DNA of 62,906 nt, taken from the NCBI RefSeq assembly GCF_021502675.1, contig NZ_JAKFHA010000049.1, positions 1 to 62,906 on the forward strand, written 5' to 3'. The notes below the pieces were generated by a model. The model was given only the letters and a program-made list of their open reading frames with translations, was not told the origin of the DNA and made no database searches. The DNA is from Yinghuangia soli. GTDB taxonomy: Bacteria; Actinomycetota; Actinomycetes; Streptomycetales; Streptomycetaceae. A program made the position numbers and the translations under genes. Of this stretch, positions 1-43,399 are shown piece by piece. The first letter of the stretch is position 1. Each line of letters opens with the position of its first letter.

Positions 1-14
1 CCGCGGCACGACGC

Positions 15-39
15 CCATGATCCGGGCGGATCCGGGTAG
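15..39 (+). promoter_or_regulatory. Weak SigB-type promoter for the sigma-like fragment gene
   Basis: A GGGTAG -10 element lies at 34-39 with CCAT exactly 15 bp upstream. The usual first G of the GNNT -35 is replaced by C, so the match is imperfect. It sits 22 bp before the ATG at 62 and shares the spacing of the better promoters in the window. Confidence 0.35.
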
Positions 40-61
40 CGGTGGGGTGGAGGCGGACACC

Positions 62-304
62 ATGAAGACCTCGGATTCGTACCTTGCGGATATCCGCGGC
101 ACCGAGCGCGCGAGCGCGCTGGCCCGAGCCGCGCGGCGGGTGTTCGACGACGGCGAAGTGCACGATCTCGTCGACCAGTTGATGCGCCGGATGGAGTCCG
201 TGGACCCCGACAGCAAGGCGTACGCGCGGTTCGCGACATGCGTGGTCGAACTGGTCACCGCACCGCCGCGCGGCGCAGGCACCGGTTCTGGCACCGCGTC
301 CTGA
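62..304 (+). CDS. Small sigma-factor-like fragment protein (80 aa)
   Basis: Function is not recognised directly. Residues from about 17 to 65 align without gaps to residues of the 154-aa protein encoded at 26588-27052: 17 of 49 are identical by my count, ending in a shared R-F-x-x-C-[VI]-V-E-L. That stretch resembles the segment before region 2 of SigB/SigF sigma factors, where actinomycete proteins often read like IELNLPLV. The protein stops just after it, so no -10-binding or region 4 part is present. The ATG at 62 is chosen because a GGAGG lies 8 bp upstream. The gene converges on the sigma factor gene that ends at 343. A role as decoy or remnant of a sigma factor is inference. Confidence 0.6.
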   Translation: MKTSDSYLADIRGTERASALARAARRVFDDGEVHDLVDQLMRRMESVDPDSKAYARFATCVVELVTAPPRGAGTGSGTAS

Positions 305-342
305 ACGATCCGGCCGCAGGGCGTCGCGCGATCGCGGCAGGC

Positions 343-1251
343 TCAGGCCACCCTCGCGACCCGCTGCTGCGCTTCGACTCCGTCGCGCAGTTGCGCAAGG
401 ATGCGCGTGATGAGCCGGGAGACGTGCATCTGGGAGATGCCGAGGCGTTCGCCGATCTGGCTCTGGGTGAGGTCCTCCCAGAACCGCAGGCGCAGTATCG
501 TGCGGTCGCGCTCGTCGAGTCCGGCGATCAGCGGCTTGACGGACTCGCGCAAGTCGACGAGTTCCAGGCCGGCTTCGGTGTAGCCGATGATGTCCGCGAG
601 CGGGCGGGCATCGGTGCCGCCGGAGGGCGGGGCGTCGAGCGAGCCGACGGTGTACGCGCGGTCGGCGTCGCGCCCGTTGTCGACCTCGTCCTTCGTCAGG
701 CCGGTGTGCGCGGCGATCTCGTCCTCGGTGGCCTCGCGTCCGAGCTGCTGCTGGAGTTCGTCGGCGGCGCGGGTGACCTTGAGGTAGTTCTCCTGCTGGC
801 TGCGGGGGACGTGCACGGCCCAGGAGGTGTCGCGGAAGAAGCGCTTGATCTCGCCGCGGACGGTGGGCAGCGCGAACCTCGCGAAGTCGCCGCCGTACGC
901 CGGGTCATAGGCGTTGATCGCCTTGATCAGGCCCACCATGCCGGTCTGGACGACGTCTTCGTAGGTGTCCCGGTTGCGGTAGCGCCGCGCCTCGTACAGG
1001 ACCAGGCGGAAATTGGCGCTCACGATCGCGCTGCGCACCCGGCTGTAGAGCTCCGTGCCCTCCTCGGCTTCCTGGAGGACGACCAGCAGTTCCGCGGTGG
1101 CGGCGCGCGCGGCGGGCGTCGCCAGGCTGCGCAATCGGTCCGGATCCCATTCCCAGATGCGTTCATCGGAAGGTGCGGGCTGGGACGGCACGGCAGCGTT
1201 GCGGGTTGCTTCGGCTATCGCTCGACGGGGTGCGACGAGGGTGGGTGTCAC
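343..1251 (-). CDS. SigB/SigF-family RNA polymerase sigma factor
   Basis: This 302-aa protein is a group 3 sigma factor of the SigB/SigF/SigG stress and sporulation family. Region 2 carries the family pattern VGLIKAINAYDP and GEIKRFFRD, region 3 lies around residues 150-215, and region 4 contains the helix-turn-helix ending in GISQMHVSRLI. The GTG at 1251 is chosen because AAGGAG lies 7-8 bp upstream and the alignable region begins shortly after. A GTTT-N15-GGGTAT promoter 58 bp upstream matches the class this family recognises, so autoregulation is likely. No anti-sigma gene is adjacent; RsbW-like and STAS genes lie at 25.7-26.6 kb. Which Streptomyces paralogue (SigB, F, G, I and others) it matches cannot be settled by eye. 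Confidence 0.95.
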   Translation of the reverse strand: MTPTLVAPRRAIAEATRNAAVPSQPAPSDERIWEWDPDRLRSLATPAARAATAELLVVLQEAEEGTELYSRVRSAIVSANFRLVLYEARRYRNRDTYEDVVQTGMVGLIKAINAYDPAYGGDFARFALPTVRGEIKRFFRDTSWAVHVPRSQQENYLKVTRAADELQQQLGREATEDEIAAHTGLTKDEVDNGRDADRAYTVGSLDAPPSGGTDARPLADIIGYTEAGLELVDLRESVKPLIAGLDERDRTILRLRFWEDLTQSQIGERLGISQMHVSRLITRILAQLRDGVEAQQRVARVA

Positions 1252-1308
1252 GGTTCGTCTCCTTCCAGCAGGGGCGAACAGAGCCACAGCTCCGGGTCGC
1301 GGAGACAG

Positions 1309-1333
1309 ATACCCGACACCAAATTCCTGAAAC
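1309..1333 (-). promoter_or_regulatory. SigB-type autoregulatory promoter
   Basis: On the minus strand GTTT (1330-1333) is followed after exactly 15 bp by GGGTAT (1309-1314). This fits the known actinomycete SigB consensus GNNT-N14-16-GGGTA(C/T). It lies 58 bp before the sigma factor start, so the sigma factor probably transcribes its own gene. Confidence 0.8.
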
Positions 1334-1532
1334 AAAGTTCGGGAATTTTTGTTCAGCGAACGCGCCGCGGGCATGCCGAAATTGAGCTCGGCACCCCTGC
1401 CAAATGGGGACAAAAAGTAACGAAAGTGGCGGCCATTCAGGCTCGCGAGTTTTGCCCGCCCGACCCGGAACCGACCGTCCCGGCGGACTCCCCGGATCAC
1501 CCGGATCCGCCGGGACAGTCGGTTCGACCGGA

Positions 1533-1916: not shown

Positions 1917-1922
1917 CCGCCT

Positions 1923-2473: not shown

Positions 2474-2518
2474 CTTCCTTCTCCCTAGCTTTCACCGGGT
2501 CGGGGTGTTTTCCAGCCG

Positions 2519-2543
2519 CTACCCAGGTCGTCCGAGGAAAAGC
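2519..2543 (-). promoter_or_regulatory. SigB-type promoter
   Basis: GCTT (2540-2543) and GGGTAG (2519-2524), read on the minus strand, are separated by exactly 15 bp. It precedes the hypothetical gene starting at 2473. Confidence 0.7.
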
Positions 2544-2644: not shown

Positions 2645-2669
2645 GTGTAGGACGCCCGGGCACGGGCAG
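2645..2669 (+). promoter_or_regulatory. SigB-type promoter (GGGCAG variant)
   Basis: GTGT (2645-2648), 15 bp, then GGGCAG (2664-2669). The same GTGT-N15-GGGCAGC form recurs at 27259-27283. It lies 91 bp before the CBS-domain gene. Confidence 0.5.
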
Positions 2670-2760
2670 CCGCCCGGTGCCGGAGCGGCCGCCGCCCCCG
2701 CCGGCCGCGCCGGTTCTGCCCTTTGTGCCGCCGCGGGGCCCGACCCTTGGAGAGGCCACG

Positions 2761-3180
2761 ATGACCCTCACAATCCGCGAAGTCATGACCGAGACCCCCG
2801 TCACGATGGACGCCAAGGCCTCCATCGGCGACGCGGCCAGGTGCATGCGCGATGACGACATCGGCGATGTCCTCGTCACCGACGGTGAAAAGCTGTACGG
2901 CGTGGTCACCGACCGCGACCTGGTGGTCCGTGCCATGGCCAAGCAGCAGGACCTGGAGCAGACCGCGGTCGGCAGCATCGCCAGCCGCAGCATGGTCACG
3001 GTCGCCCCCGACGACGCCGTCGACCATGCCGTCCACGTGATGCGCACGCATGCCCTGCGGCGCCTTCCGGTGGTCGACGGCGAACGCCTCGTCGGCATCG
3101 TCTCGCTCGGCGACCTGGCGAGGGAGAAGGATCCGACGTCGGCTCTGGCCGACATCAGCGCCGCCGAACCCAATGCATGA
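2761..3180 (+). CDS. CBS-pair domain protein
   Basis: This 139-aa cytosolic protein consists of two tandem CBS motifs and little else. The first covers about residues 8-60 (VMTETPVTMDA to GVVTDRDLVVRAMA) and the second about residues 72-125 (SRSMVTVAPDD to VGIVSLGDLA). CBS pairs bind adenosyl nucleotides and act as energy or redox sensors; stand-alone members in actinomycetes and mycobacteria are often part of hypoxia or stress regulons. The ATG at 2761 has GGAGAGG 6 bp upstream. A GTGT-N15-GGGCAG promoter 91 bp upstream suggests SigB control. The partner that receives the signal is not evident. Confidence 0.93.
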   Translation: MTLTIREVMTETPVTMDAKASIGDAARCMRDDDIGDVLVTDGEKLYGVVTDRDLVVRAMAKQQDLEQTAVGSIASRSMVTVAPDDAVDHAVHVMRTHALRRLPVVDGERLVGIVSLGDLAREKDPTSALADISAAEPNA

Positions 3181-3227: not shown

Positions 3228-3253
3228 GCTTGCGTTCCCCGTCGGCCGGGTAC
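3228..3253 (+). promoter_or_regulatory. SigB-type promoter
   Basis: GCTT (3228-3231), 16 bp, then GGGTAC (3248-3253), within the published GNNT-N14-16-GGGTA(C/T) consensus. It precedes the isochorismatase-family gene by 54 bp. Confidence 0.6.
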
Positions 3254-3307: not shown

Positions 3308-3844
3308 GTGAAAACTGCCGTCCTCGTCATCGACATGATCAACACGTATGGGCACGACGATGCGGAGCTGCTCGTGCCCTCGGTGCGGCACGTGCTTCCG
3401 GCCGTCGGCGCCCTGATCGGCAGGGCGCGTGAAGAAGGCATCGATGTCATCTACGTCAACGACAACTTCGGGCTGTGGCGGTCCGACCGCGCCGAGGTGG
3501 TGCGGACGGCCGTGGACGGGCCGTACGGCGACCTGGTGCGCCCGGTCGCCCCGGACGAGGACGCGCTGTTCGTGCTGAAGACCCGCCACTCCGCCTTCTT
3601 CCGGACGCCGCTGGACTACCTGCTGGACCAGCGGGGGGTGGGCCACGTGGTGCTGTGCGGGCAGGTCACCGAGCAATGCGTGCTCTACTCGGCGGTCGAC
3701 GCGCACGTGCGCCACCTTGCGGTGACCGTCGCCGAGGACGCGGTCGCGCACATCCATGCGGATCTGGCGCAGGCCGCGCTGCGCATGATGGAGCGCAACC
3801 TCGGCGCGCGGGTCTGCCCGGGGGACCGCGCCGAGCTGGTCTGA
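3308..3844 (+). CDS. Isochorismatase-family cysteine hydrolase
   Basis: This 178-aa protein has the isochorismatase/nicotinamidase fold. The catalytic triad is visible: Asp9 in AVLVIDM, Lys91 in FVLKTRHSAF and Cys124 in TEQCVLYSA, with the usual cis-peptide neighbourhood GQVTEQC. The length is typical. Members hydrolyse nicotinamide, ureido acids, N-carbamoyl compounds or isochorismate, and the substrate cannot be told from the sequence. The GTG at 3308 is chosen because GGAGTCAGG lies just upstream and VKTAVLVIDM is the natural start of the first strand. It is followed 39 bp later by the flavodoxin-fold gene, and both have SigB-type promoters. Confidence 0.92.
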   Translation: MKTAVLVIDMINTYGHDDAELLVPSVRHVLPAVGALIGRAREEGIDVIYVNDNFGLWRSDRAEVVRTAVDGPYGDLVRPVAPDEDALFVLKTRHSAFFRTPLDYLLDQRGVGHVVLCGQVTEQCVLYSAVDAHVRHLAVTVAEDAVAHIHADLAQAALRMMERNLGARVCPGDRAELV

Positions 3845-3849
3845 GGTAC

Positions 3850-3874
3850 GCATGCGGTCGGCGCCCCCGGGTAG
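3850..3874 (+). promoter_or_regulatory. SigB-type promoter giving a leaderless or near-leaderless message
   Basis: GCAT (3850-3853), 15 bp, then GGGTAG (3869-3874). Only 9 bases separate the -10 from the ATG at 3884 and no ribosome site fits there. The same spacing is seen at 27259-27283. Confidence 0.7.
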
Positions 3875-3883
3875 CGGCGCGGC

Positions 3884-4489
3884 ATGCGAGCCTTGATCGT
3901 CAATTGCACCCTGAAGCCGCCCCCGGAGGACTCGAACACGGAAGCCCTCGCGGCCGTGGTCGCCGACGCGATGCGGGAGCGGGACGTCGACGTCTCGACC
4001 GTCCGCGCGGTGGACTTCGACATCAAACCGGGCGTCTCGGCCGACATGGGCTCGGGAGACGCCTGGCCGGCGATACGCGAACAGGTTCTGGACTCCCGCA
4101 TCCTGGTGATCGCGTCGCCGACCTGGCTGGGCCGCCCGTCGTCCGTCGCGCAGCGCGTGCTGGAGCGGTTGGACGCCATGCTCGGCGAGACCGACGACGA
4201 CGGCGTGCCGGTCGCGTACAACCGCGTCGTCGGCGTCGTGGTGACCGGCAACGAGGACGGCGCCCACCACGTCGTCAGCGAGATCACCGGCGCGCTCGGG
4301 GACATCGGCTTCACGACGCCGGGCCAGGCGTGGACGTACTGGCACCTCGGCCCCGGCCCGGGGCCCGACTACCTCGAAGAGCAGCGCGGGCACGAATGGG
4401 CGCACAAGACCGGGCGTGCGATGGCCGCGAATCTGGTGGGCGTGGCCCGGGCGCTGGAGGCAATGCCCCTGAGCGCCCCGCCCGAGTGA
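3884..4489 (+). CDS. Flavodoxin-fold NAD(P)H-dependent oxidoreductase
   Basis: This 201-aa protein has the flavodoxin/NADPH-dependent FMN reductase fold. The N-terminal strand ALIVNCTLK and the following loop PPPEDSNTEAL form the FMN phosphate site. IRILVIASPTWLGRPSS-like sequence around residues 70-90 and GVVVTGNEDGAHHV around residue 115 match the second and third flavin loops. It probably reduces quinones or other small electrophiles with FMN in the cytosol. The ATG at 3884 is the only sensible start and has no Shine-Dalgarno sequence, consistent with a leaderless transcript from the SigB-type promoter 9 bp upstream. Confidence 0.9.
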   Translation: MRALIVNCTLKPPPEDSNTEALAAVVADAMRERDVDVSTVRAVDFDIKPGVSADMGSGDAWPAIREQVLDSRILVIASPTWLGRPSSVAQRVLERLDAMLGETDDDGVPVAYNRVVGVVVTGNEDGAHHVVSEITGALGDIGFTTPGQAWTYWHLGPGPGPDYLEEQRGHEWAHKTGRAMAANLVGVARALEAMPLSAPPE

Positions 4490-5929: not shown

Positions 5930-6802
5930 TCACCCGGGGAGGGTCTCGCCGCCGATGGGGGTGAGGACTTCGCCGGTGTAGTAGCTGGACAGCCGCTCCG
6001 CGGCGAAGAACACGTAGGACGGGGCGATCTCGTCGGGTTCGGCGGCGCGCCCCATAGGCGCCTGCTCGCCGAAGGACGCGACGCGCTCGGCCGGGAAGGT
6101 GGCCGGGATCAGCGGTGTCCACACCGGCCCCGGGGCCACGCAGTTGACCCGGATGCCGCGTTCGCGCAGCGCCTGGGACAGGGCGTACGTCAGGGCCAGC
6201 ACCGCGCCCTTGCTCGCCGAGTAGTCGATGAGCGTCGCGTTGCCGCGGAGCCCGTTGATCGAGGACGTGTTGATGATCGCCGAGCCTTTCCGCAGGTGCG
6301 GCAGGGCGGCCTTGGTGGTCCAGAAGTAGCTGTGCACGTTGACCCGGAAGGTGTGCTCCCACGTCTCGGAGTCCAGGTCGGCGAAGTCCTCGACCGGCTC
6401 CTGGTACGCGCAGTTGTTGACCAGCAGGTCGAGCCCGCTCAGCCCTTCGGCCGCGGCGGCCACCAGTGTGCGGCAGGGCTCCTCGGACGACAGGTCGGCG
6501 CGGTGCACGATGCAGCGGCGTCCTTCGGCCTCGACCAGGCGGGCGGTGTGCGCGGCGTCCTCGTCCTCGGCTTCGGAGAGATAGCCGATCGCGACGTCCG
6601 CGCCTTCCTTGGCGAAGGCCACCGCGACCGCGCGCCCGATCCCGGAGTCGCCGCCGGTGATCAGCGCGCGGCGGCCCGCCAGCAGGCCGCTGCCGGTGTA
6701 GTCGGCCATGGCATCCCTGGGACGGGGCTCCATAGCCTCCGTCACGCCGGGGTACGGCTGCTCCTGGGCGGGTATGTCGGTGTGTCCGGTCGTGGGGGTC
6801 AT
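5930..6802 (-). CDS. SDR oxidoreductase, general-stress-protein-39-like
   Basis: This 290-aa protein is a classical-type short-chain dehydrogenase with an extra N-terminal arm rich in Pro and Gln. It has the cofactor motif TGGDSGIG, an NNCAYQEP in place of NNAG, the catalytic serine in INTSSINGLRG and YSASKGAV. The N-terminal arm and the P-I-x-P-A-T-F segment are typical of the YdaD/GSP39-like subgroup, which is SigB-controlled in Bacillus. The substrate is unknown; NAD(P)-linked alcohol or sugar oxidation is likely. The start at 6802 has GGAGAGG upstream. It lies in an operon with a 42-aa peptide gene upstream and DUF4235 downstream. Confidence 0.93.
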   Translation of the reverse strand: MTPTTGHTDIPAQEQPYPGVTEAMEPRPRDAMADYTGSGLLAGRRALITGGDSGIGRAVAVAFAKEGADVAIGYLSEAEDEDAAHTARLVEAEGRRCIVHRADLSSEEPCRTLVAAAAEGLSGLDLLVNNCAYQEPVEDFADLDSETWEHTFRVNVHSYFWTTKAALPHLRKGSAIINTSSINGLRGNATLIDYSASKGAVLALTYALSQALRERGIRVNCVAPGPVWTPLIPATFPAERVASFGEQAPMGRAAEPDEIAPSYVFFAAERLSSYYTGEVLTPIGGETLPG

Positions 6803-6845: not shown

Positions 6846-6974
6846 TCAGTGCCGGCCTCGCGCCGATTCCGATGCCCCGCCGAACAACCGGGCAAGGGCC
6901 CGGAACGGCAGGGTCACAACCGTTGCGATGGCACTGCCGATCTTGCGCAGGACGTCGCCTATCGCCTTGAACAT
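6846..6974 (-). CDS. Small LPF-motif basic protein (42 aa)
   Basis: A 42-aa frame starting MFKAIGDVLRKIGSAIATVV and continuing LPFRALARLFGGA has a perfect GGAGG 6 bp before its ATG at 6974. Short amphipathic proteins with a V-T-L-P-F-R-x-x-A-R-L-F core are common in streptomycetes, but no function is known to me. It precedes the stress SDR by 43 bp and is the first gene after a GTTT-N15-GGGCAG SigB-type promoter, so it probably leads the operon. Confidence 0.7.
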   Translation of the reverse strand: MFKAIGDVLRKIGSAIATVVTLPFRALARLFGGASESARGRH

Positions 6975-7025
6975 GAGGGCCTCCCTGAGCCGGCGCTGAT
7001 GCCGAATCCACGGTCATCTCAGCGG

Positions 7026-7050
7026 CTGCCCCTGTTCCCCGGACGGAAAC
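7026..7050 (-). promoter_or_regulatory. SigB-type promoter (GGGCAG variant)
   Basis: On the minus strand GTTT (7047-7050) is followed after exactly 15 bp by GGGCAG (7026-7031). It lies 51 bp before the 42-aa peptide gene that leads the SDR/DUF4235 operon. Confidence 0.65.
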
Positions 7051-9701: not shown

Positions 9702-10706
9702 TCAGGTGGCCCGGGGCTCATTGAACCGGCGGGCGGCGCGTTCGCCGAGGACAGTTGCCTTGCGCACCCAGGCGGCGGTCCCGCCGGCCCGGGCGACGAT
9801 GCCCGGGAGGTCTTCACCCGCGGGCGCCTCGGGCGGTGCGTCGGGCAGGGCCCGGGCGGCCAAGGCCATGAAGCGTCCGGTCGTCGCGGGGGCGACGCCA
9901 TGGGCCAGGACGGCGGCTTTCGCGGCGGGTGTGAGGACGAGTTCCGCGCGGCCGCGGGCGGCGGCCCGGACGATGGCCCGGGCGGCGCGTTCGGCGTCCA
10001 TGGAGAGCAGCGGCATCGACGCGGCGGCGGCGAACCAGGCGTACTCGCGTTCGGCGCGGCCGCCGAAGCGGGCGGCGCGGTGCGAGCCGGTGCGCATGAG
10101 GCCGGGGACCACGGTGGTGACGGCGATGCCGGTCCCGGCGGTCTCGGCGCGCAAGCCCTCGGAGAATCCGACGGCGGCGAACTTGGCGCATGCGTAAGGC
10201 AGGAGGTGCGGGGCGGCGATGCGGCCGCCGAGCGAGGTCACGTTGGCGATCCGGGCCTGGTCCCGGGCCCGCAGTCCGGGCAGCAGGGCGAGGGTGAGCC
10301 GCATCGGGCCCAGGAACATCACGTCCATCGCGGACTGGAACTGCTCGGGCGTCAGTGCTTCCAAAGGCGCGACCGAGATGATCCCGGCGTTGTTGACCAG
10401 GGCATCGAGGTCGCCGAAGTGCTCGCCCAGGTCGGCGACGAGTTCGTCGACGCGGTCGGGTTCGCCCAGGTCGCAGACGAAGACCGCGGGCCGGTGGCCG
10501 GTCGCGTTCTCGATCTGATCGGCCGCCCGGCCGAGTTCGGCCTTGTCGCGGGCGCAGATCGCCACCCGGGCGCCGGCTGCGGCGAGTTCGCGGGCGATCA
10601 GCAGCCCGAGGCCGCGGGAACCGCCCGTGACCAGGGCCGTCCGGCCGCGGAACCATACGGGGGTGCGGCGGAGGGCAGCCGGTATGTGCACAGGCGTGGT
10701 GGCCAT
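9702..10706 (-). CDS. SDR family oxidoreductase
   Basis: This 334-aa short-chain dehydrogenase has TGGSRGLG for cofactor binding, NNAG, a catalytic serine in NVTSLGGRIA and YACAKFAAVGF. A further 100 residues beyond the core include hydrophobic stretches (ELVLTPAAKAAVLAHGVAP) and a basic C-terminus, a layout seen in actinobacterial SDRs associated with membranes. The substrate is unknown. The start at 10706 has GGGAGG 7 bp upstream. It is divergent from another SDR gene at 10832 and leads a probable operon with the alcohol dehydrogenase. Confidence 0.93.
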   Translation of the reverse strand: MATTPVHIPAALRRTPVWFRGRTALVTGGSRGLGLLIARELAAAGARVAICARDKAELGRAADQIENATGHRPAVFVCDLGEPDRVDELVADLGEHFGDLDALVNNAGIISVAPLEALTPEQFQSAMDVMFLGPMRLTLALLPGLRARDQARIANVTSLGGRIAAPHLLPYACAKFAAVGFSEGLRAETAGTGIAVTTVVPGLMRTGSHRAARFGGRAEREYAWFAAAASMPLLSMDAERAARAIVRAAARGRAELVLTPAAKAAVLAHGVAPATTGRFMALAARALPDAPPEAPAGEDLPGIVARAGGTAAWVRKATVLGERAARRFNEPRAT

Positions 10707-10797
10707 CGTGGCCTCCCTTCCGGGACATGCCGTCCCGTGCCCGGCCGCTGTCCGCTCCCGCAGCCCGCAAACCCGGGCGGCCGGGGACCGGACAGGT

Positions 10798-10822
10798 GTT
10801 TGCCGCTCCTGGCAGCGGACAG
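10798..10822 (+). promoter_or_regulatory. Degenerate SigB-type promoter candidate
   Basis: GTTT (10798-10801), 15 bp, then GGACAG (10817-10822), which matches GGGTAG at 4 of 6 positions. As at 3884 and 27249, exactly 9 bases separate it from the ATG at 10832. Confidence 0.3.
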
Positions 10823-10831
10823 CCGCTCGTT

Positions 10832-11845
10832 ATGACGACCACGCGCCACCACCCGCAGACTGTCGTGGTCACCGGGGCGACCGGTGGCGTCGGGCGAGCC
10901 GTGGTGCGCCGTTTCGCGGCGCGCGGCGACCGCCTGGTGCTGGTGGCCCGCGGGCGAGCCGGTCTGGATGCGGCGCTGGCCGAGGCCATGTCCGCGGGTG
11001 CGGACGCGATCGCCGTACAGGCCGATGTCGCGGATCCGGCCGCAATGGAGGCAGTGGCCGTGGCGGCCGTGGCCACCTTCGGACGGATCGACGTATGGGT
11101 CAACAACGCGTTCGTCGGGGTGTTCGCGCCGTTCACGCAGGTCACGGCCGTGGAGTTCAAGCGCGTGACGGAAGTGACCTACCTCGGCTACGTGTACGGG
11201 GCGCAGGCGGCCTTGCGCCGCATGGTCCCGGCCGACCACGGCACCCTGGTCCACGTAGGCTCGGCAATCGCCTACCGGGGCATCCCGCTGCAGACCGCGT
11301 ACAGCGGCGCGAAACACGCGCTGCAGGGCTGGCACGAGGCGCTGCGCTGCGAGTTGCTGCACTCGGGCACGAATGTACGGACCACCATGGTGCACCTGCC
11401 GGCCGTCAACACCCCGCAGTTCGACTGGGTCCGATCCAGGCTGCCGCGCGGCGCCCGGCCGGTGCCGCCGATCCACCAGCCGGAGGTGGCCGCGCGGGCG
11501 ATCGTCCACGCGGCGGACCACCCCGGGCGCCGGGAGTACTGGGTCGGGGCCAGCACCGCGGCGACGTTGATCGCCAACGCGGTGGCGCCCGGGATTTTGG
11601 ACCGGTACTTGGCCCGCACCGGCTACGCCGCGCAGCAGACCGATGAGCCGCGGGCTGCCGATGGCAGCGCACTCGGCAATCTGTGGCGGCCCGTGGACGA
11701 GTACCGCGACCACGGAGCGCACGGCCGCTTCGACGACCACGCCCAGGCGCACAGCGTCCAGGCCTGGGCGTCCCGCCACCACGGCACGATGGCGGCAGTA
11801 ATGGTGCTGGCCGCCGCCACCGTGCTGTGGCGGCGGCGTCGCTGA
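10832..11845 (+). CDS. SDR family oxidoreductase with C-terminal membrane anchor
   Basis: This 337-aa short-chain dehydrogenase has TGATGGVG for cofactor binding, NNAFVGVFAP in place of NNAG, a catalytic serine in HVGSAIAYRG and YSGAKHALQGW. The last 25 residues form a hydrophobic helix ending in RRRR, so the enzyme is probably tail-anchored with its catalytic domain in the cytosol. The ATG at 10832 is chosen because the fold starts directly after it. No ribosome site is visible, so initiation may be leaderless. It is divergent from the SDR at 9702-10706. Confidence 0.9.
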   Translation: MTTTRHHPQTVVVTGATGGVGRAVVRRFAARGDRLVLVARGRAGLDAALAEAMSAGADAIAVQADVADPAAMEAVAVAAVATFGRIDVWVNNAFVGVFAPFTQVTAVEFKRVTEVTYLGYVYGAQAALRRMVPADHGTLVHVGSAIAYRGIPLQTAYSGAKHALQGWHEALRCELLHSGTNVRTTMVHLPAVNTPQFDWVRSRLPRGARPVPPIHQPEVAARAIVHAADHPGRREYWVGASTAATLIANAVAPGILDRYLARTGYAAQQTDEPRAADGSALGNLWRPVDEYRDHGAHGRFDDHAQAHSVQAWASRHHGTMAAVMVLAAATVLWRRRR

Positions 11846-17106: not shown

Positions 17107-17170
17107 GACGGGCCGCTGCCCAGATGCGGCCAGGGCATTCGGCGCGGCGGGGCCGAGTCGGCGCGGGGCG

Positions 17171-20100
17171 TCAGCGGACCCGGACCGCGACCACGCACGT
17201 GTCGTCGTCGGTGTCCGCGCGGCTGTGCGCGAGCAGGTGGTCGAGGAGCTCGCCGACGCTGCCGTCGCGGCCGCGGGCCTGCACGAGCAGTTCGGCGACG
17301 GCCTCGACCACGCTGCGGTCACGGCGTTCGACCAGGCCGTCGGTGTACAGGAGCAGCGTGTCGCCAGGGCGCAGGGTCAGTTCTGCGTCCTCGTAGGACG
17401 CGTCGTCGAGGGCGCCCAGCAGGATGCCGCGGGGCGGGACCAGCACGGCCGCCTCGCCGTCGCGCAGGAGCACCGGCGGCGGGTGTCCGGCGGCGGCCCA
17501 GCGCAGGACGCGCGTCTGCGGGTCGTACAGCGCGCACACCGCGCTCGCGGTGGTGTGCTCGGCGAGGTGGTGGGCCGCGGTGTTCAGCCAGCCGAGCAGC
17601 CGCCCGGGCGGCTCGCCGGTGACCGCGAGGCCGCGCAGCGCGTGGCGGAGGATGAGCATGCAGGTCGCGGCGTCGATCCCGTGCCCGGCCACGTCGCCCA
17701 CGCACAGCAGGATCCGGGACGTCGGCATGATCACCGCGTCGTACCAGTCGCCGCCGACGGCCGTGTCGGATTCCGCCGGGCGGTAGCGGGCTGCCACATC
17801 GAGGTCGGCGGAGTCGAGGGGTTCCTGGTCGGGCGGCATGATGGCGCGCTGGAGCTGCCGGGCGAGGCGGTTGCTCTCGACGGTCTCGCGTTCGGAGACG
17901 GCGAGGCGGTCGCGGGTGGCGTCCAGCGCGACCTCGGTCCAGTACTGCGCGGAGACGTCCTGCTGGATGCCGCGGACGCCGATCGGACGGCCGTCCTCGC
18001 CGGCCACGGGCTCGGCCACGACGCGCACGTGGCGGACGGTCTCCGGGTCCGCCGCGAGCCGGAACACCGTGGCGGCCGGGCGGTGCTGGGCCAGCACGGT
18101 ACGCAGGAACCGGGCAAGGGTGTCGGCGTCGTCCGGGTGGGCGCGCGCCGGCAGGTCGGCAAGTCGGAACGGCCCTGCGCCGGGCGGCAGGCCGTGGAGT
18201 TCGTGGAGCCCGTCCGTCCAGGTGACGGCGCCGGTCACGGCATCCTCGTGGAACGCGCCGATGCGGCCGAGCCGTTGCGTGTCGCGGAGCAGGTCGGCGG
18301 CGGTGTTCTCGGGGGCGCGGACGCGCCAGCGCACGAGCACGCAGTCGCCGTGCCGGGTCGCGGACAGGTCCATGGCGGCGCCGGGCGGGGCGCCGGGCAC
18401 CAGCGCGGCAAGTGGCAGGCCTTCGGCATGGGACGGGCGGCCGGTGGCGTAGACGTGTTCGATCCGGGCGGACAGCCCCTCGGCCGCGGCGGATTCGGGG
18501 TAGTGGGCGCTCAGACGGGTGCCGAGCACGGCGCGCGCGGGCGGTGAACCTGCGGCGGCGTAGCGGTCGTTGGCGTGGTGGACCCGGAAGTCGGCGAGTC
18601 GGCCGTCCGGGGCGTGCAGCGGGACAAGGACCCAGGCCGGGTCGGGCAGGCTGTCGGCGAGGGCAACGGTCTCGGCGGTGCCGTCCGGGGTGCCCTCGGC
18701 GCTGCGCGGCGTGCGCGCCGCGTTGCCTGGCGTGTGCGCGGCGCTGATCGGGTCGTCGGCGCCCGGTGGGTCGGTGAGCGTCCGGGCGCACAGCGCCGCC
18801 AGCGACTCCAGGCGGCGGTGCACGGACTCCGGACCGGGCGCGACGGGATGCGCCCAGGCGATCTCCAGGACGCCGCGTACCCGGCCTCCGGCGACCGCGG
18901 GCACGGCCACCCGGGCGCCGGCGACCTCGGCTGCGCCGATGGAGGCCAGGGCGGCGTACGGAGTCGCGTACGGTCCGGCGGGTGCGCCCGTTTCGGCCCA
19001 TCCTGCGCCGCCGGCCAGCCGGGGCAGCCACACGGTCGCACGTCCGGCCACGGCCCGGCCGGCCGGGGTGGCGACGCCCGGCGGCACGTACCGCCAGCCG
19101 GCTGCGGCACTTTCGGTGAACCCGGCGTGGCCGCGGAGCCGGAGCGAGCCGTCGGCGGCGAGGCTCCACAAGGCAACGGCCGCGGCACCGAGGGTGGGCA
19201 GGACGTCCGCGGCAATGGCGTCGACGGCCGTCTGCGGGTCGCTTCGAGACGCCAGCACGCCGCTCTCCCCCGCCCCGGGAACCGGCGCCGCGGAGGTCCC
19301 GGCGGCGGCGGTGGCATGGGACGCGCCCGCACCGGGGGTTTGCGGGAGAGCCGCAGCAGTGACATCGCCGCCCGGCTGGGGGTCGCCGCCGGATGCCGGC
19401 AGCCCGCCCTCCTCCGCTGCCCGAAACGGTGCCGCTGTGGCGCCTGCCGACGAATTTCCAGGCGCTGCGGTCGCCTTGCGGGCAGCCCCCGTACCGAGGT
19501 TTTGCCGGACGTCCGCGCCAAGCTCGTCTTCACCCAGTGCGGGCGGGCCGCTCTCCCCCGCAGCAGGGACGGCCTGCACGGGATCGCCGGCCGAAGTGCC
19601 GGGGGCCGCGGTCGCCTTGCGGGACACCCCCGTGCCGAGAGTTTCCGTGACGTCGGTGCCAGCGCCGTCGCCGCCCGTTGCCGGACGGCTATCCTCCCCC
19701 GCGGCAGGGACGGCCTCCGCAGGAGTGCGTGCCGAAGTGCCGGGAGCTGCGGTCGCCTTGCGGGGCGCCCCCGTGCCGAGGGTGTGCGCGACGTCCGCGC
19801 CAACGCCGTCGCCGCCCTGTGCCGGACGGCTGCTCTCCTCCACGGCGGGAACCGGTGCTGCAGGGGTGCCGACCGGATCACCATGGCCTGACGCTGCGGC
19901 AGGTGGCATCGCTGCGTCAAAGTCTGCGGACGGCGGAGTCGCGACGCCAGAGCCTTCGCCACCCGTCGGCACGGCGCCCTCCGCAGCACCCGCGACGATG
20001 TCGGCGGCCAAGCCGACGACATCGACCCCTGCTCGGTCGGCGAGATCCGCGAGGAGCCGCGCAGCCTCGGCGGCGGAGCAGCGGCCCTGCCCGACCAGGA

Positions 20101-20438: not shown

Positions 20439-23612
<3,174 letters not shown>

Positions 23613-25319: not shown

Positions 25320-25397
25320 GGTCGGGTCCTTCCGTGGTCCGCGCCACCGGGCGGTGCCGGGGATTGCAGCGCCCGGATGGTGCGCTTCGGTCCGCCG

Positions 25398-25422
25398 CTA
25401 CCCGTACGCGGCGTGCTCAGGC
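25398..25422 (-). promoter_or_regulatory. SigB-type promoter for the EF-hand/GCS2 operon
   Basis: GCCT (25419-25422) and GGGTAG (25398-25403), read on the minus strand, are exactly 15 bp apart. Confidence 0.7.
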
Positions 25423-25679
25423 ATCGGATCGGGCACGATTGCCTGCGTGACAACCGGCGTCGTCCGGGTAGCCGCACGAATGCCGGGGCAGTATTACGCC
25501 ACGGCGGGGCTGCTGCGGTCCCTGCCGCGGCCCGGCGCGACTTCGGCGGGCGCACACGCCATGCTGAAGGCGAAAATGCAGAAAGCAGAATGAAAGACGG
25601 ACCGCAGCAATGCACGGCGGTCGGCGGGGTGACCGGAGGGGGAGGCAATGTCGGGAGCCGCAGTGGTGGGAGCCGCCGC
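25423..25679 (+). other. Divergent intergenic region before the RsbW-like gene
   Basis: With the promoter above this makes a 360-bp gap (25320-25679). A plus-strand GGGTAG lies at 25466-25471, but the nearest GNNT is 17 bp away, so it is a doubtful promoter. A 48-codon frame starting GTG at 25447 has no support beyond codon bias. I see no hairpin or operator. Confidence 0.3.
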
Positions 25680-26162
25680 ATGACATCAGGGGAAGAGCCC
25701 GAACCGGCCGTGCGGGTCGAAGTGGTCCGCGGGGGCACCCTGGTGGTGCACCTGGACGGGTCGCCCGGCTCGGTACGCGCAGCCAGGCTCGCCGCGGAGC
25801 AGTTCCTCGCGACGGACGCCCCGCACGTGCCGGACCGCCCGCCCGCAGCCGGCGCAGCCCCCGGCGGCGCGCCCAAGGCGTCCGTCGACACGCTCATGGT
25901 GGTCGGCGAGCTGGTGGCGAACGCCTGCCGGCACGCGCCGGGCCCGTGCCGCCTCACGCTGCGCTGCACGCCGTCCGGCGCCGAGATCACGGTCCGGGAC
26001 GGCGGCGACCGGCAGCCGCTGGACCGCGGAGTGCGGGCGCCCGGCTACGGGCTGATGATCGTCAAGCGGCTGACCGGCGGGGTCCGGGTGCTGTCGCACG
26101 GCGGCGGCAAAACGGTGCAGGCCACGGTGCCGTTCGCGGGCGTCCGCCCTAGGCTTGGTTGA
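25680..26162 (+). CDS. RsbW-like ATP-binding anti-sigma/serine kinase
   Basis: This 160-aa protein is a GHKL-type ATPase of the RsbW/SpoIIAB family common in streptomycetes. Visible motifs are the N-box VGELVANACRHAPG, a D-x-G box in VRDGGDR and the G-box GYGLMIVKRL. Members hold a sigma factor or phosphorylate an STAS protein on serine. An extra Pro/Ala-rich loop lies at about residues 50-70. The ATG at 25680 has GGGAG 9 bp upstream. The STAS gene follows 45 bp downstream, giving the classical antagonist pair. Whether it binds the sigma factor at 343-1251 cannot be told from sequence. Confidence 0.9.
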   Translation: MTSGEEPEPAVRVEVVRGGTLVVHLDGSPGSVRAARLAAEQFLATDAPHVPDRPPAAGAAPGGAPKASVDTLMVVGELVANACRHAPGPCRLTLRCTPSGAEITVRDGGDRQPLDRGVRAPGYGLMIVKRLTGGVRVLSHGGGKTVQATVPFAGVRPRLG

Positions 26163-26207: not shown

Positions 26208-26561
26208 ATGACGGCTCCGAAGGACCCCGGCGGCACTCCCGGCGATGCCGTGGACGCCGACTGGACGGTGGTCGCCGCCGACGGCGACATCGACTTCTAT
26301 TCGGCCGAGGAGTTCGGCGCCAAGCTGGACGCCGTGGCCGGCGACGGCGCGCGGCACATCGTCGTCGACATGAGCACCGCGGGTTTCCTCGATTCGAGCG
26401 GTCTGCGCGTCCTTCTCCATACCGCCCGCGAACTCCGGGAATCCGGCGGCATGCTGCGCCTGGCCGCCGCCCCCGAGCAGACGCTCCGCGTCATCGACCT
26501 GGCCCAAGTGGGCCCCCTGCTCCCCACCTTCGAGGACGTCGCCACGGCAGCCGGCAGCTGA
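26208..26561 (+). CDS. STAS-domain anti-anti-sigma factor (RsbV-like)
   Basis: This 117-aa protein is a single STAS domain. The phosphoacceptor segment reads AGFLDSSGLRVLL, with Ser63 the likely site by comparison with RsbV and SpoIIAA. The N-terminal strand pair is WTVVAADGDIDFYSA. In the unphosphorylated state such proteins bind the RsbW-type kinase and free the sigma factor. The ATG at 26208 has GGAGGGA upstream. It follows the RsbW-like gene and is probably co-transcribed. The SpoIIE phosphatase at 17171-20395 could regenerate its active form (inference). Confidence 0.93.
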   Translation: MTAPKDPGGTPGDAVDADWTVVAADGDIDFYSAEEFGAKLDAVAGDGARHIVVDMSTAGFLDSSGLRVLLHTARELRESGGMLRLAAAPEQTLRVIDLAQVGPLLPTFEDVATAAGS

Positions 26562-27249: not shown

Positions 27250-27258
27250 GCTGTGCCG

Positions 27259-27283
27259 CTGCCCTGATGTGCCGGGATGACAC
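27259..27283 (-). promoter_or_regulatory. SigB-type leaderless promoter (GGGCAG variant)
   Basis: GTGT (27280-27283) and GGGCAG (27259-27264), minus strand, are 15 bp apart. The bases from the -10 to the start read GGGCAGCGGCACAGC, nearly the same as GGGTAGCGGCGCGGC before the ATG at 3884. Confidence 0.6.
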
Positions 27284-27325: not shown

Positions 27326-27350
27326 GCGTGACGCGTCGGCCGCCGGGTAG
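27326..27350 (+). promoter_or_regulatory. SigB-type promoter
   Basis: GCGT (27326-27329), 15 bp, then GGGTAG (27345-27350). It precedes the iron-containing redox enzyme gene by 64 bp. Confidence 0.65.
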
Positions 27351-27414
27351 CCGCGAGGCGACCCGGCGCCGGGACGACCAGGTGTCGGTGACCCGATCAG
27401 AGGATGTGGTGAGG

Positions 27415-29365: not shown

Positions 29366-29419
29366 GATCGGCGGCTGCCCTGCGCGCCGCCGCCGAAACG
29401 ACGCGGCGCGCGTGCCGGA

Positions 29420-29881
29420 CTACGCGGCGCGCGGTGCGGGGATGCCGGCCTGCCCGCTCGGCGACCGGCGCCGTTCGCCGCGGCAAGCACCGCGCAGCCG
29501 GACGAAGAGGCGCTCCTCGTGGTCGCTGCGGTGGTCGCGGAACGCCACACGCAGGTTGCCGAGGAGCGTGCCGTACTGCGGCGCGTGGGGCGGGCAGGCG
29601 GCCAGTTCGTCCAGGCAGCGGGAGAGGTAACTGTGTGCCCGCAGGCCATGCGCCACGAGTTGGCAGCCACCGGTGACGTTCCGCCGGACGGCCGGATAGA
29701 TGCGCCGGCATTCGTGGTCGGCGTCGGCACGCAGTACCGCCGCCAAGTCGCCGACGGCCTCACCCACACGGGCACCGCCGCCGTCCACCGCGACCTTGCG
29801 CTGCACCTCGGCCAGGGCCTTGTCGATGTCCGCGTGCCGGGCGGCCGACTCCACGATCGCCCGGATCTCCGCGGTGGCCAT
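29420..29881 (-). CDS. Hemerythrin HHE-domain protein
   Basis: This 153-aa helical protein has the spaced His/Glu ligand pattern of the hemerythrin HHE family: ARHADIDKAL, RADADHECRRIYPA, VAHGLRAHSYL and FRDHRSDHEERLFVRL. A diiron centre binding oxygen or nitric oxide is expected. The start at 29881 is preferred over the ATG 12 bp upstream because GGAGGA lies 5 bp before it. A GGGTAG -10 lies 69 bp upstream but its -35 is poor. The gene leads a minus-strand run of hemerythrin, methyltransferase and CDGSH genes. Confidence 0.9.
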   Translation of the reverse strand: MATAEIRAIVESAARHADIDKALAEVQRKVAVDGGGARVGEAVGDLAAVLRADADHECRRIYPAVRRNVTGGCQLVAHGLRAHSYLSRCLDELAACPPHAPQYGTLLGNLRVAFRDHRSDHEERLFVRLRGACRGERRRSPSGQAGIPAPRAA

Positions 29882-29949
29882 AACGTCCTCCATCCCTATG
29901 CCCCTCGACGCGGGGTCGGCGTCGCCTCCGAAAGTGAGGCATCCAGCCG

Positions 29950-29974
29950 CTACCCGCCCAAGAACAACGGCACC
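29950..29974 (-). promoter_or_regulatory. Partial SigB-type promoter
   Basis: GGGTAG (29950-29955, minus strand) has GGTG 15 bp upstream, keeping only the G of GNNT. It is the only candidate found before the hemerythrin gene. Confidence 0.35.
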
Positions 29975-30065: not shown

Positions 30066-30090
30066 GCGTGGACCGCGGCCGACCGGGTAG
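30066..30090 (+). promoter_or_regulatory. SigB-type promoter
   Basis: GCGT (30066-30069), 15 bp, then GGGTAG (30085-30090), identical in form to 27326-27350. It precedes the molybdopterin oxidoreductase by 53 bp. Confidence 0.65.
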
Positions 30091-30143
30091 CCGCCGCGCG
30101 AGCCGCGTACGACGCACAGCGGCACTGCTGGAGGAGGCCCCCG

Positions 30144-41865: not shown

Positions 41866-41924
41866 CCGGCAACTCCCCTACCGGCAACGGCATCTCATTC
41901 CGCTGCCCGGATTCACCACGCAGC

Positions 41925-41957
41925 CGCCCGGCCGCCGCACTCCGCAGCGGCCGGGCG
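41925..41957 (+). terminator. Intrinsic hairpin terminator
   Basis: A perfect 11-bp stem, CGCCCGGCCGC and GCGGCCGGGCG with an 11-base loop, lies 59 bp after the secreted protein gene. It could also serve the convergent thioesterase gene. Confidence 0.7.
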
Positions 41958-42057
41958 CTGTGCACATGTCTCTTGCACCGATGGCTCCCGGGTACGCGGC
42001 CCTCAGCCCCGGACACATGGGCTCCCGCAGCGGATCACCTGCGGAAAGCCGCGCCGA

Positions 42058-42849
42058 TCACGTCCGTACGGTGTCGGCGGCGTCGGCACCGTCCACGCCG
42101 GCTTCGCCGTCCTCCGACGCGGACTCGCCGCCCTGGCTCCACAGCGTCCGCATCGCGGGCGGGGCGATGAACACCGCGGTCGCCTCGGCGGTGACTCGGC
42201 CGCCGGCCAGGATCTCGCCGGTGGCAAAGCTCTTGCGGCCCTCGCAGTGCGTCCAGCGGGCCCGCACCTCGAGCGGCACGTCGTACGGCGTGGCGGCCCG
42301 GTAGCGGACGTCCAGCCCCGCGGTGAAGCCCGGCACGCCCGCGGCCGATGCGGCCAGGCCGAGCACATGGTCGAGGAGGGTGGCCACGACTCCGCCGTGG
42401 GCGCGTCCGGGCGGGCCGCTGTGCGCTGCGGACAGGGTGCAGTCCGCGACGACCTCCACGGACTTCGGTTCGGCGTCGGCCGCGAAGGCCTTCGTCGCCA
42501 TGTCGGGCGAGTCCCGGAAGACCAGGCGCGGCGCCTGCGGGTTGAGCATCCCCGAACCGGCCTGCGTCAGCTGGTCGATGCGGCCGCCCGGCGTGCGGGC
42601 GAAGCGTACGACGGCGTCGTTGGTGGCGGCCTGCAGCAGTTTCGTGGCCTGGCTCACCAACTGCGCGGCTTCGGCACGCACTTCGGCGTCCACATCGGTC
42701 CGTACCGCGGCCTCGACGAGGTTCCGGATGCCCTCGACCAAGTCCAGCGACGCAGCCGGGACGTCCGCGACCTCGGGGATTCCGTCCGCCAGCAGCCTCT
42801 CGATGGCCGCGGCGAACACCGCGGCTCCCTCGTCACCCGGTCCGGTCAT
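42058..42849 (-). CDS. PaaI-family hotdog thioesterase
   Basis: This 263-aa protein has a helical N-terminal extension (about residues 1-95) and a hotdog-fold thioesterase domain. The PaaI-type signature is SGPPGRAHGGVVATLLDHVLG and the strand TAGLDVRYRAATPYDVPLEV follows. It probably hydrolyses acyl-CoA thioesters. The acidic C-terminal tail (GGESASEDGEAGVDGADAAD) is disordered. The start at 42849 has AGGGGGCAG upstream. Confidence 0.9.
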   Translation of the reverse strand: MTGPGDEGAAVFAAAIERLLADGIPEVADVPAASLDLVEGIRNLVEAAVRTDVDAEVRAEAAQLVSQATKLLQAATNDAVVRFARTPGGRIDQLTQAGSGMLNPQAPRLVFRDSPDMATKAFAADAEPKSVEVVADCTLSAAHSGPPGRAHGGVVATLLDHVLGLAASAAGVPGFTAGLDVRYRAATPYDVPLEVRARWTHCEGRKSFATGEILAGGRVTAEATAVFIAPPAMRTLWSQGGESASEDGEAGVDGADAADTVRT

Positions 42850-43001
42850 CGCGCTGCCCCCTGTTGCTGTGGTGCGCGCGCCCGCGGACGGCCGCGCCAA
42901 TTACATGACTATGGCAAGCAAATCGCCTCGATCATACAGACGCCCTTGCCGGCGCATGCGACACGTGTCCAGCAGGCTCCGCGCATACCCGGGGCATCGG
43001 G

Positions 43002-43026
43002 GCATGGCAGCGCCACGCACGGGTAG
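43002..43026 (+). promoter_or_regulatory. SigB-type promoter
   Basis: GCAT (43002-43005), 15 bp, then GGGTAG (43021-43026), followed by CGGC as at 3850-3874. It precedes the 99-aa gene by 73 bp. Confidence 0.7.
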
Positions 43027-43099
43027 CGGCGTGCCGGGTCGGACGAGGCCGTCCGCTTCCCCTCCGCACCGCGGAAGCCGACCGAAGGAGCGTGCACCC

Positions 43100-43399
43100 A
43101 TGACCCGACCGCGGAACCGTGTCATCGGCATGCGAGGCCCCCACGTCGCGCCCGGCATCCCCGAGGACCACGAAGGCAGCGACGACGTGGCCGGCACGGG
43201 TTACCCACCCGCCGACGCAGCCGAATCCCAGGCCGCCCACCGGGACGAATCCCGGATCGCCGGCGAGGACGGCTCCCCGGCCTTGGACCGCGCCGTGGGC
43301 GCATCGGGGCCGGAAGACGGCACGACCGAGCCCCACGACACCGAGACCCGCGAGCTGCTGACCGACGCCCCGCCCCCGAACCGCCGTACGGCCCCCTGA
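43100..43399 (+). CDS. Acidic, probably disordered protein (99 aa), putative SigB regulon
   Basis: The product is not recognised. It is hydrophilic, rich in Pro, Asp, Glu and Ala, with no hydrophobic core, signal or repeat, and is likely intrinsically disordered. A short basic start (MTRPRNRVIGMRG) precedes the acidic body. The ATG at 43100 has AAGGAG 9 bp upstream, and a GCAT-N15-GGGTAG promoter lies 73 bp before it, which supports expression as a stress protein. Confidence 0.7.
   Translation: MTRPRNRVIGMRGPHVAPGIPEDHEGSDDVAGTGYPPADAAESQAAHRDESRIAGEDGSPALDRAVGASGPEDGTTEPHDTETRELLTDAPPPNRRTAP

What the first reader, a model, noticed from the sequence alone, without database searches (positions are those of the whole stretch)
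1..43100. Dense SigB-type regulon with a fixed 15-bp spacer
On reading the intergenic regions I found GNNT, exactly 15 bp, then GGGTA(G/T) or GGGCAG before at least nine genes or operons: 1309-1333, 2519-2543, 2645-2669, 3850-3874, 7026-7050, 25398-25422, 27259-27283, 27326-27350, 30066-30090 and 43002-43026, plus an N16 case at 3228-3253 and weaker ones. The sigma factor at 343-1251 belongs to the family that reads such promoters and has its own copy. The published SigB consensus ends in C or T; here G is most common and GGGCAG is a possible second form. The set clusters in one region, mostly before stress, redox and small membrane genes.
Basis: partly seen in the sequence, partly recalled or inferred. 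Interest (0 to 1): 0.85.

Follow-up and report, generated by a model that had tools for sequence, protein, structure and literature searches.

The report
Stress promoters with a longer signature
This stretch of an actinobacterial genome carries at least a dozen matching on-switches for stress-type genes, laid out to one rigid plan and grouped with the kind of sigma factor that should read them, and the switch is longer than its published description.

Summary
In detail: 10 of 10 quoted N15 sites and the N16 site are present, and the ten lie upstream of same-strand genes. GNNT-N15-GGGTAG occurs 73 times genome-wide, 6 in this 0.65% of the genome; N16 occurs 77 times, none here. But the sites are not in one region: they also cluster on C23, C78, C42, C13 and in a congener. 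The -10 element is longer than reported: GGG(T/C)AG is followed by C(C/G)GC in this genus and by VCGC in islands of another. A matrix trained on 51 sites outside the window gives 15 window hits, 15 upstream; 680 kb of background gives 18, 2 upstream. In 134 intergenic sites ATG follows after 9 bases in 17 and 10 in 5, at most 4 elsewhere: leaderless starts. In published S. coelicolor promoters, CG at the matching place is found in 9 of 16 SigB-recognised and 0 of 8 others, though that paper reports no distinguishing feature. Best reading: a SigB-class stress regulon with an extended -10. Which sigma reads it is open; there are no expression data. New variant of a known kind.

The parts
343..1251 (-). 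SigB/SigF/SigG-type sigma factor gene (302 aa)
   Evidence: Pfam Sigma70_r2, r3, r4; TIGR02980 244.9 bits, cut-off 234.35
1309..1333 (-). site GTTT-N15-GGGTAT, 57 nt before the sigma GTG; followed by CTGT, so no extended tail
   Evidence: matrix score 11.9
2515..2543 (-). GCTT-N15-GGGTAG-CGGC before 2003-2473 (no Pfam family)
2645..2673 (+). GTGT-N15-GGGCAG-CCGC before CBS-domain gene 2761-3180
3228..3253 (+). weak site GCTT-N16-GGGTAC before isochorismatase gene 3308-3844; may be chance
3850..3878 (+). GCAT-N15-GGGTAG-CGGC, 9 nt before the ATG of FMN-reductase gene 3884-4489 (leaderless)
7022..7050 (-). GTTT-N15-GGGCAG-CCGC, 51 nt before a 42-aa ORF (6846-6974) and then the SDR gene 5930-6802
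10744..10772 (-). GTTT-N15-GGACAG-CGGC, 41 nt before SDR gene 9702-10706
   Evidence: held-out matrix, score 12.6; gene
10798..10826 (+). GTTT-N15-GGACAG-CCGC, 9 nt before the ATG of SDR gene 10832-11845 (leaderless)
   Evidence: held-out matrix, score 12.9
17112..17140 (-). GAAT-N15-GGGCAG-CGGC, 9 nt before the ATG of CYTH-CHAD gene 15445-17106 (leaderless)
17171..19258 (-). GAF/PAS/SpoIIE-phosphatase gene, candidate activator of the partner switch
   Evidence: Pfam SpoIIE 1.2e-49
25394..25422 (-). GCCT-N15-GGGTAG-CGGC before EF-hand gene 25032-25319 and glutamate-cysteine-ligase-like gene 23810-25042
25447..25475 (+). GTGA-N15-GGGTAG-CCGC (one mismatch in GNNT), about 208 nt before the RsbW-like gene
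25680..26162 (+). HATPase_c_2 gene, RsbW-like anti-sigma kinase candidate
   Evidence: Pfam 6e-11
26208..26561 (+). STAS-domain gene, RsbV-like antagonist candidate
   Evidence: Pfam 1.7e-19
27255..27283 (-). GTGT-N15-GGGCAG-CGGC before DUF5670 small membrane gene 27079-27219; same distance (39 nt) and near-identical site before the G001 homologue
27326..27354 (+). GCGT-N15-GGGTAG-CCGC before heme-oxygenase-like gene 27505-28473
29371..29399 (-). GTTT-N15-GGGCAG-CCGC, 9 nt before the ATG of methyltransferase gene 28700-29365 (leaderless)
29946..29974 (-). weak: GGTG-N15-GGGTAG-CGGC before 29420-29881 (hemerythrin-like, below Pfam cut-off)
   Evidence: score 11.4
30066..30094 (+). GCGT-N15-GGGTAG-CCGC before molybdopterin oxidoreductase gene 30144-32528
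43002..43030 (+). GCAT-N15-GGGTAG-CGGC before 43100-43399 (no Pfam family)
15..39 (+). weak: CCAT-N15-GGGTAG-CGGT before 62-304; close to the contig end
   Evidence: score 12.1

Best explanation
The sites are working promoters of a SigB-class (group 3) sigma factor regulon. Their form here is GNNT, exactly 15 bp, then an extended -10 of CGGG(T/C)AG-C(C/G)GC, with transcription starting at about the 10th base after the hexamer, so that some genes are leaderless. They drive a general stress-type set (redox, thiol, molybdoenzyme, small membrane or envelope proteins) gathered in islands together with SigB-like sigma factors and RsbW/RsbV/SpoIIE-type partner-switch genes. Proposed working: stress activates a SpoIIE phosphatase, which dephosphorylates the STAS protein, which draws the kinase off the sigma; the freed sigma opens these promoters, possibly including that of the RsbW/RsbV-like pair. 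Shown by sequence: motif, spacer, extension, start-codon geometry, clustering, recurrence in other genomes, presence of the switch genes. Inferred: that a SigB-type sigma reads them, the switch, the stress signal. Not resolved: whether the window sigma, the C23 paralogue or both are responsible.
For: Spacer-15 peak in the window and other islands, absent from 680 kb of background and from the N16 control genome-wide. Flanking bases not used for selection are conserved in 62 sites, and 43 cores chosen without any -35 show G in 39 and T in 38 at the predicted places. Held-out matrix: 15 of 15 window hits upstream. ATG at offset 9 in 17 and 10 in 5 of 134 sites. GNNT-N15-GGGTAGCSGC 20 versus control 0 in this genome and 18 versus 4 in G001. 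Same spacer peak in g18 islands near SigB-like genes. Mapped SigB promoters of S. coelicolor have the same layout and a matching CG. Partner-switch genes in the window and beside the C23 sigma.
Against: No transcription data. The published SigB consensus ends in C or T (PMC5402319), which most of these sites do not. Neither the window sigma nor the C23 sigma has the full tail at its own upstream site. Stretches around two sigmas of the same clade (G001 C36, G002 6091k) hold no upstream N15 GGGTAG site. In G002 the extended form is not above control (8 versus 7). The partner-switch genes of the window are not next to the sigma gene.
Confidence: 0.8

Rival explanations
1. Right class, other reader: the promoters are read mainly by the C23 paralogue (operon sigma, HATPase_c_2 kinase, ANTAR-GAF-PAS-SpoIIE) or another of the eight SigB-type sigmas, and the window sigma is itself only a target in a sigma cascade.
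For: The C23 sigma lies inside an island with its own switch genes. The window sigma's own site is of the classical GGGTAT kind without the tail. Cross-recognition among SigB homologues is known (PMC8346170, section 8).
Against: The window sigma has an orthologue at the edge of the G001 island (60% identity), and the extended motif is most abundant in the two genomes that hold this pair.
Confidence: 0.4
2. The conserved element is the binding site of an activator or repressor that overlaps a promoter, not a sigma recognition site.
For: The conserved stretch after the hexamer is longer than the stated SigB -10.
Against: One orientation, not palindromic, two half-elements at a fixed 15-bp gap, and a fixed distance to start codons of leaderless genes; it matches mapped SigB promoters.
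Confidence: 0.07
3. The sites are chance matches in G+C-rich DNA that a reader picked out.
Against: 0 of 100 shuffles, held-out matrix, spacer control, conserved flanks.
Confidence: 0.02

Closest known systems
Streptomyces coelicolor SigB/SigL/SigM promoters (PMC8346170; consensus GNNTN-N14-16-GGGTAY as quoted in PMC5402319)
   Same: GNNT -35, GGG-Y-A core of the -10, spacing within 14-16, SigB-type sigma under partner-switch control; CG two to three bases after the hexamer in 9 of 16 SigB-recognised promoters.
   Different: Here the spacer is nearly always 15, the last hexamer base is G, and a CSGC (or VCGC) tail is conserved; sites are gathered in islands. The stated consensus has C or T last and no tail.
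Bacillus subtilis SigB general stress regulon (GTTTAA-N12-14-GGGWAW, quoted in PMC8346170)
   Same: Same sigma subfamily and RsbW/RsbV/SpoIIE logic.
   Different: A/T-ending -10, no CG tail in that consensus; the window sigma scores 171 bits against a cut-off of 315 for the SigB equivalog model TIGR02941. That sigB lies in one operon with its switch genes is recalled.
OsdR/DevR stress island of S. coelicolor (SCO0167-SCO0219, PMC5069765)
   Same: Many stress genes with shared control elements held together on the chromosome.
   Different: That island rests on a two-component response regulator and a palindromic site and is rich in universal stress proteins; here a sigma-type promoter is shared.

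Membership tests
SigB/SigF/SigG sigma factor subfamily (TIGR02980) | score over the curated cut-off | tested here: met
   window sigma 244.9 bits, cut-off 234.35; six of the genome's sigmas over it, C23 (232.6) and C45 (232.5) just under
SigB equivalog (TIGR02941, Bacillus type) | score over the curated cut-off | tested here: not met
   171 bits, cut-off 315
Streptomyces SigB promoter (GNNTN-N14-16-GGGTAY) | GNNT -35 with 14-16 bp to GGG | tested here: met
   10 of 10 quoted sites at N15; 39/43 G and 38/43 T in cores chosen without a -35
Streptomyces SigB promoter (GNNTN-N14-16-GGGTAY) | -10 ending in C or T | tested here: not met
   of 76 upstream N15 GGGnAn island sites 39 are GGGTAG and 23 GGGCAG; GGGTAT 2, GGGTAC 1
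Streptomyces SigB promoter (GNNTN-N14-16-GGGTAY) | transcription start 8-11 bases after the hexamer | tested here: inconclusive
   indirect: start codons at offset 9 (17) and 10 (5) of 134 sites; no RNA data
Streptomyces SigB promoter (GNNTN-N14-16-GGGTAY) | transcribed by a SigB-type holoenzyme | not testable with these tools
   needs run-off transcription or deletion plus RNA-seq
Partner-switch-controlled SigB system | RsbW-type kinase, RsbV-type STAS protein and SpoIIE phosphatase encoded nearby | tested here: met
   25680-26162, 26208-26561, 17171-19258 in the window, not adjacent to the sigma gene; kinase and SpoIIE directly after the C23 sigma
OsdR/DevR-type stress island | universal stress proteins and palindromic OsdR sites | tested here: inconclusive
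   no universal-stress-protein Pfam hit among 34 of 61 called window genes scanned; the palindrome was not searched for

The most novel reading that the evidence does not exclude
A clade of SigB-type sigma factors with a changed region 2.4-3.0 (the second Arg of VPRRLQE replaced by Ser, Gly or Thr) reads a distinct extended promoter, GNNT-N15-CGGGYAGCSGC (VCGC in a second genus). The bases just after the classical hexamer are a specificity element absent from the SigB consensus forms that I read, and they are part of what separates SigB/SigL targets from SigF/SigH/SigN targets in this family.
Probability: 0.4. Interest if true: 0.78.

Novelty: new variant of a known kind. Interest (0 to 1): 0.62.

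Why it matters
Streptomycetes carry many SigB paralogues whose promoters look interchangeable; PMC8346170 states that its promoter groups show no specific distinguishing feature. A CG(C) element just after the -10 hexamer is a small, mutable set of bases that can be tested in that same promoter collection. It also sharpens regulon prediction: 20 genome-wide hits with a reversed control of 0 for GNNT-N15-GGGTAGCSGC, against 73 with a control of 109 for the shorter form. The islands show sigma factors and a good part of a regulon held together on the chromosome.

Tried and rejected
Chance: rejected for the set by shuffles, spacer controls and a held-out matrix. Single region: rejected by genome-wide positions. 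Shorter patterns for counting over genomes: GYRTS-N14-GGGTAG exceeded its reversed control in only 2 of 15 genomes and not in this one (22 versus 23), although 18 of the 22 sites here lie in the islands; GYRTS with GGGYAG gave 163 at spacer 15 and 161 at spacer 16, lists cut at 100. The longer core was therefore used. Naming relatives through genome contigs led nowhere: 4 distant loci. The region 2.4-3.0 signature as proof of the responsible sigma: rejected as proof. G001 C36 and G002 6091k carry it without an island, while G112 833k and G052 1309k keep PRR yet lie among such sites. The union of the island sigmas of the two genera has weak support (85/50), and C45 and G038 C18:168k share the change outside that group. 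Border features: no tRNA in the window. Structure prediction and fold search were not used, as they would not answer the question; a sequence search of solved structures only confirmed the sigma family.

Rows and sequence left out: the background is 34 stretches (680 kb) taken at even steps; stretches fetched because they hold a hit or a sigma gene were kept out of it. Logos keep only sites outside called genes and within 300 nt upstream of a same-strand called gene. Islands outside the window were chosen by N15 GGGTAG hits or by SigB homologues, so their N15 GGGTAG counts are not independent; the tail, the GGGCAG form and the start offsets were not used for that choice. The columns of the held-out matrix were picked after a logo that included 11 window sites; its weights come only from 51 sites elsewhere. 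G052 and G112 are near-duplicates, so the 48 sites of g18 are fewer independent events. The published table had been displayed before the VCGC tail was seen; the test uses all 24 rows, and the table is small.
Full report
1. What was checked. The window is the whole of contig C44 of a 9.7-Mb genome in 91 contigs. No tool gives its name; a Streptomycetaceae member is my inference from the relatives, not a result. All ten N15 sites and the N16 site are present as quoted. With a simple codon-usage gene caller (61 genes), 10 of 10 N15 sites lie outside genes and upstream of a same-strand gene.

2. More than chance. In the window GNNT-Nx-GGGTAG is found 6 times at x=15, all upstream, and 0 or 1 times at each other spacer from 11 to 20. 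The same peak is seen in C23:250-410 kb (12, 10 upstream), in C78:70-130 kb (6, 4 upstream) and weakly in C42 (3, 2 upstream), while 680 kb of background has 4 (1 upstream). GGGCAG also peaks at 15 upstream of genes: 5 in the window and 8 in C23, against 0-1 and 0-3 at other spacers; in C78 and C42 it does not (1 and 0 upstream). Genome-wide GNNT-N15-GGGTAG has 73 matches (reversed control 109), 6 in the window; N16 has 77 (control 186), none in the window and none in C23:250-410 kb. Neighbouring pairs within 10 kb: 20 for N15, 4 for N16; Poisson probability of 6 in the window 1e-5, not corrected for the choice of window. Shuffling: 15 GNNT-N15-GGGYAG matches against 4.38 +/- 1.94, 0 of 100 shuffles as high.

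3. Not one region. Besides the window, sites cluster at C23:272-303 kb and 377-388 kb, C78:83-101 kb, C42:52-57 kb and C13:32-67 kb. Whether these contigs adjoin is unknown. The congener G001 has a like island on C53 (80 kb): 13 N15 GGGTAG, 12 upstream, against 0-3 at other spacers; G002:1.02-1.20 Mb has 6 (5 upstream). Stretches around other SigB-type sigmas of G001 and G002 (140 kb) have 4 N15 GGGTAG, 0 upstream.

4. In 62 upstream N15 GGGYAG sites of G000, G001 and G002 islands, columns not used for selection are conserved: C before GGG 47/62; after GGGYAG, C 57/62, C or G 58/62, G 48/62, C 48/62. Conversely, 43 upstream cores GGGYAGCSGC taken without asking for a -35 have G (39/43) and T (38/43) exactly where GNNT-N15 predicts; the background has 1 such upstream core in 680 kb. 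GNNT-N15-GGGYAGCSGC has 69 matches genome-wide (reversed control 33), 11 of them in the window; its GGGTAG part is 20: 6 in the window, 4 in C23, 4 in C78, 3 in C13, 2 in C42, 1 in C49. A matrix with weights from 51 sites outside the window gives, at score 12, 15 window hits, 15 of 15 upstream; background 18 in 680 kb, 2 upstream; one shuffled window 2. The sigma's own site scores 11.9, under that cut.

5. Start geometry. In 134 GNNT-N15-GGGYAG sites outside called genes, from island stretches of this genus and stretches of other genera, ATG begins after exactly 9 bases in 17 and after 10 in 5; no other offset from 0 to 36 exceeds 4 (the gene caller served only to drop sites inside genes). Leaderless mRNAs starting at the A of ATG would give this. 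In PMC8346170 Table 2 the TSS column holds 8-11 bases after the hexamer for the 16 SigB-recognised promoters. Short of RNA this is the best sign that these are promoters.

6. Distribution. Over 121 genomes of the family, GNNT-N15-GGGTAGCSGC gives 20 (control 0) in G000, 18 (4) in G001, 8 (7) in G002 and at most 10 in any of the other 118. Genus g18 has a mild excess (97 against 58 in 27 genomes, summed by hand). Stretches of seven g18 genomes around SigB-like genes (320 kb) show the same 15-bp peak (GGGTAG 15 upstream against 0-3 at other spacers; GGGCAG 25 against 0-7) with a related tail in 48 sites: A, C or G (47/48), then C 43/48, G 47/48, C 30/48. G005 and G126 stretches show at most a weak peak (2 and 1 upstream). 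So spacer, final G and a CG-bearing tail recur, and the tail has drifted.

7. Published promoters re-read. PMC8346170 (passages, section 8, and section 26 part 1 were read) lists 24 S. coelicolor promoters with the sigma factors that recognise each, and states that its groups have no specific distinguishing sequence feature beyond small -35 differences. CG at bases 2-3 after the hexamer is present in 9 of 16 SigB-recognised and 0 of 8 other promoters (Fisher 0.0095); in 1 of 12 recognised by SigF, SigH or SigN against 8 of 12 not (0.0094); for SigL 7 of 11 against 2 of 13 (0.033). CG at the five other offsets tested is at most 2 of 16 in the SigB-recognised set. The table is small and the test came late, but the position was taken from other genomes. 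Three of 24 have GGGTAG, so the final G has precedent.

8. What lies downstream. Window: CBS protein, FMN reductase, a 42-aa ORF followed by an SDR, two further SDRs, CYTH-CHAD, EF-hand plus GCS2 ligase, DUF5670 membrane protein, heme-oxygenase-like, methyltransferase, molybdopterin oxidoreductase, and two genes without a Pfam family. Other islands: large catalase, GCS2, hemerythrins, three polyketide-cyclase-like proteins, cation efflux, Orn/Lys/Arg decarboxylase, P450, DUF5133, DUF6479; 6 of the 20 proteins scanned had no family at 1e-5. Within the fetched stretches, best hits of site genes in other genomes are themselves site genes in 168 of 378 cases, against 259 of 1554 for other genes (near-identical genomes counted apart).

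9. Which sigma. Eight SigB-type sigmas score near or over the family cut-off, six over it. The window sigma and G001 C53:7 kb pair at 60% identity inside a clade of eight sigmas which, among the rows in the tree, are all from this genus (100/93, 96/98). The C23 sigma is in the same clade and is followed by an anti-sigma-kinase-like gene and an ANTAR-GAF-PAS-SpoIIE gene. These eight and eight g18 sigmas replace the second Arg of the VPRRLQE stretch by Ser, Gly or Thr; by recalled knowledge of sigma70 this lies where the upstream edge of the -10 is read. The association with islands is not clean (see Tried and rejected), and the sites upstream of the window, C23 and G001 sigma genes that I looked at lack the full tail. 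Which sigma reads the promoters is not proven.

10. Mechanism and verdict. Most likely a stress-activated partner switch frees one or two SigB-type sigmas, which open these promoters. Promoter class: strongly supported. Sigma family: well supported. Exact sigma, signal and role of the tail: open. Passages only were read of PMC5402319, PMC5069765, PMC9205884, PMC11538686 and PMC3613396; PMC5402319 and PMC3613396 give GNNTN-N14-16-GGGTAY or GGGYAY, and none of the passages states a CG tail. Text searches (and six written forms, 15 of 50 papers listed) showed no listed paper that describes it; logos in figures could not be checked, so a tail may already be visible in one.

Noticed in passing
L012:17014-17343(-); L135:16991-17314(+); L149:6533-6859(+); L187:8080-8403(+); L185:9548-9898(+); L196:8627-8950(-): A conserved protein of about 107-116 aa (75-87% identity to the L012 copy in five other genomes) that has an N15 site in 6 of 6 copies; no Pfam family over its cut-off and no NCBIfam hit. 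In G001 it is the gene just before a SigB-like sigma.
   Followed up: partly
PMC8346170 Table 2: CG two to three bases after the -10 hexamer: 9 of 16 SigB-recognised promoters, 0 of 8 others.
   Followed up: yes
window 20439-23612 (-): A 1057-aa hybrid histidine kinase with several HAMP domains, GAF, HisKA and a receiver domain inside the island.
   Followed up: no
window 13705-15422 (+): A two-component pair (HAMP-HisKA kinase and OmpR-type regulator), no site found before it.
   Followed up: no
G000 C23:382850-386849 (L007:12850-16849): Sigma, HATPase_c_2 and ANTAR-GAF-PAS-SpoIIE genes in a row, a compact partner-switch unit.
   Followed up: partly
G000 C45:192197-192931 and G038 C18:168516-169388: Two long-branched SigB-type sigmas that pair with full support and also lack the second Arg of VPRRLQE.
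   Followed up: no
G000 C23:279622, C78:95712 and C42:53085: Three polyketide-cyclase-like (SRPBCC-type) paralogues, each with its own N15 GGGTAG site, in three different islands.
   Followed up: no
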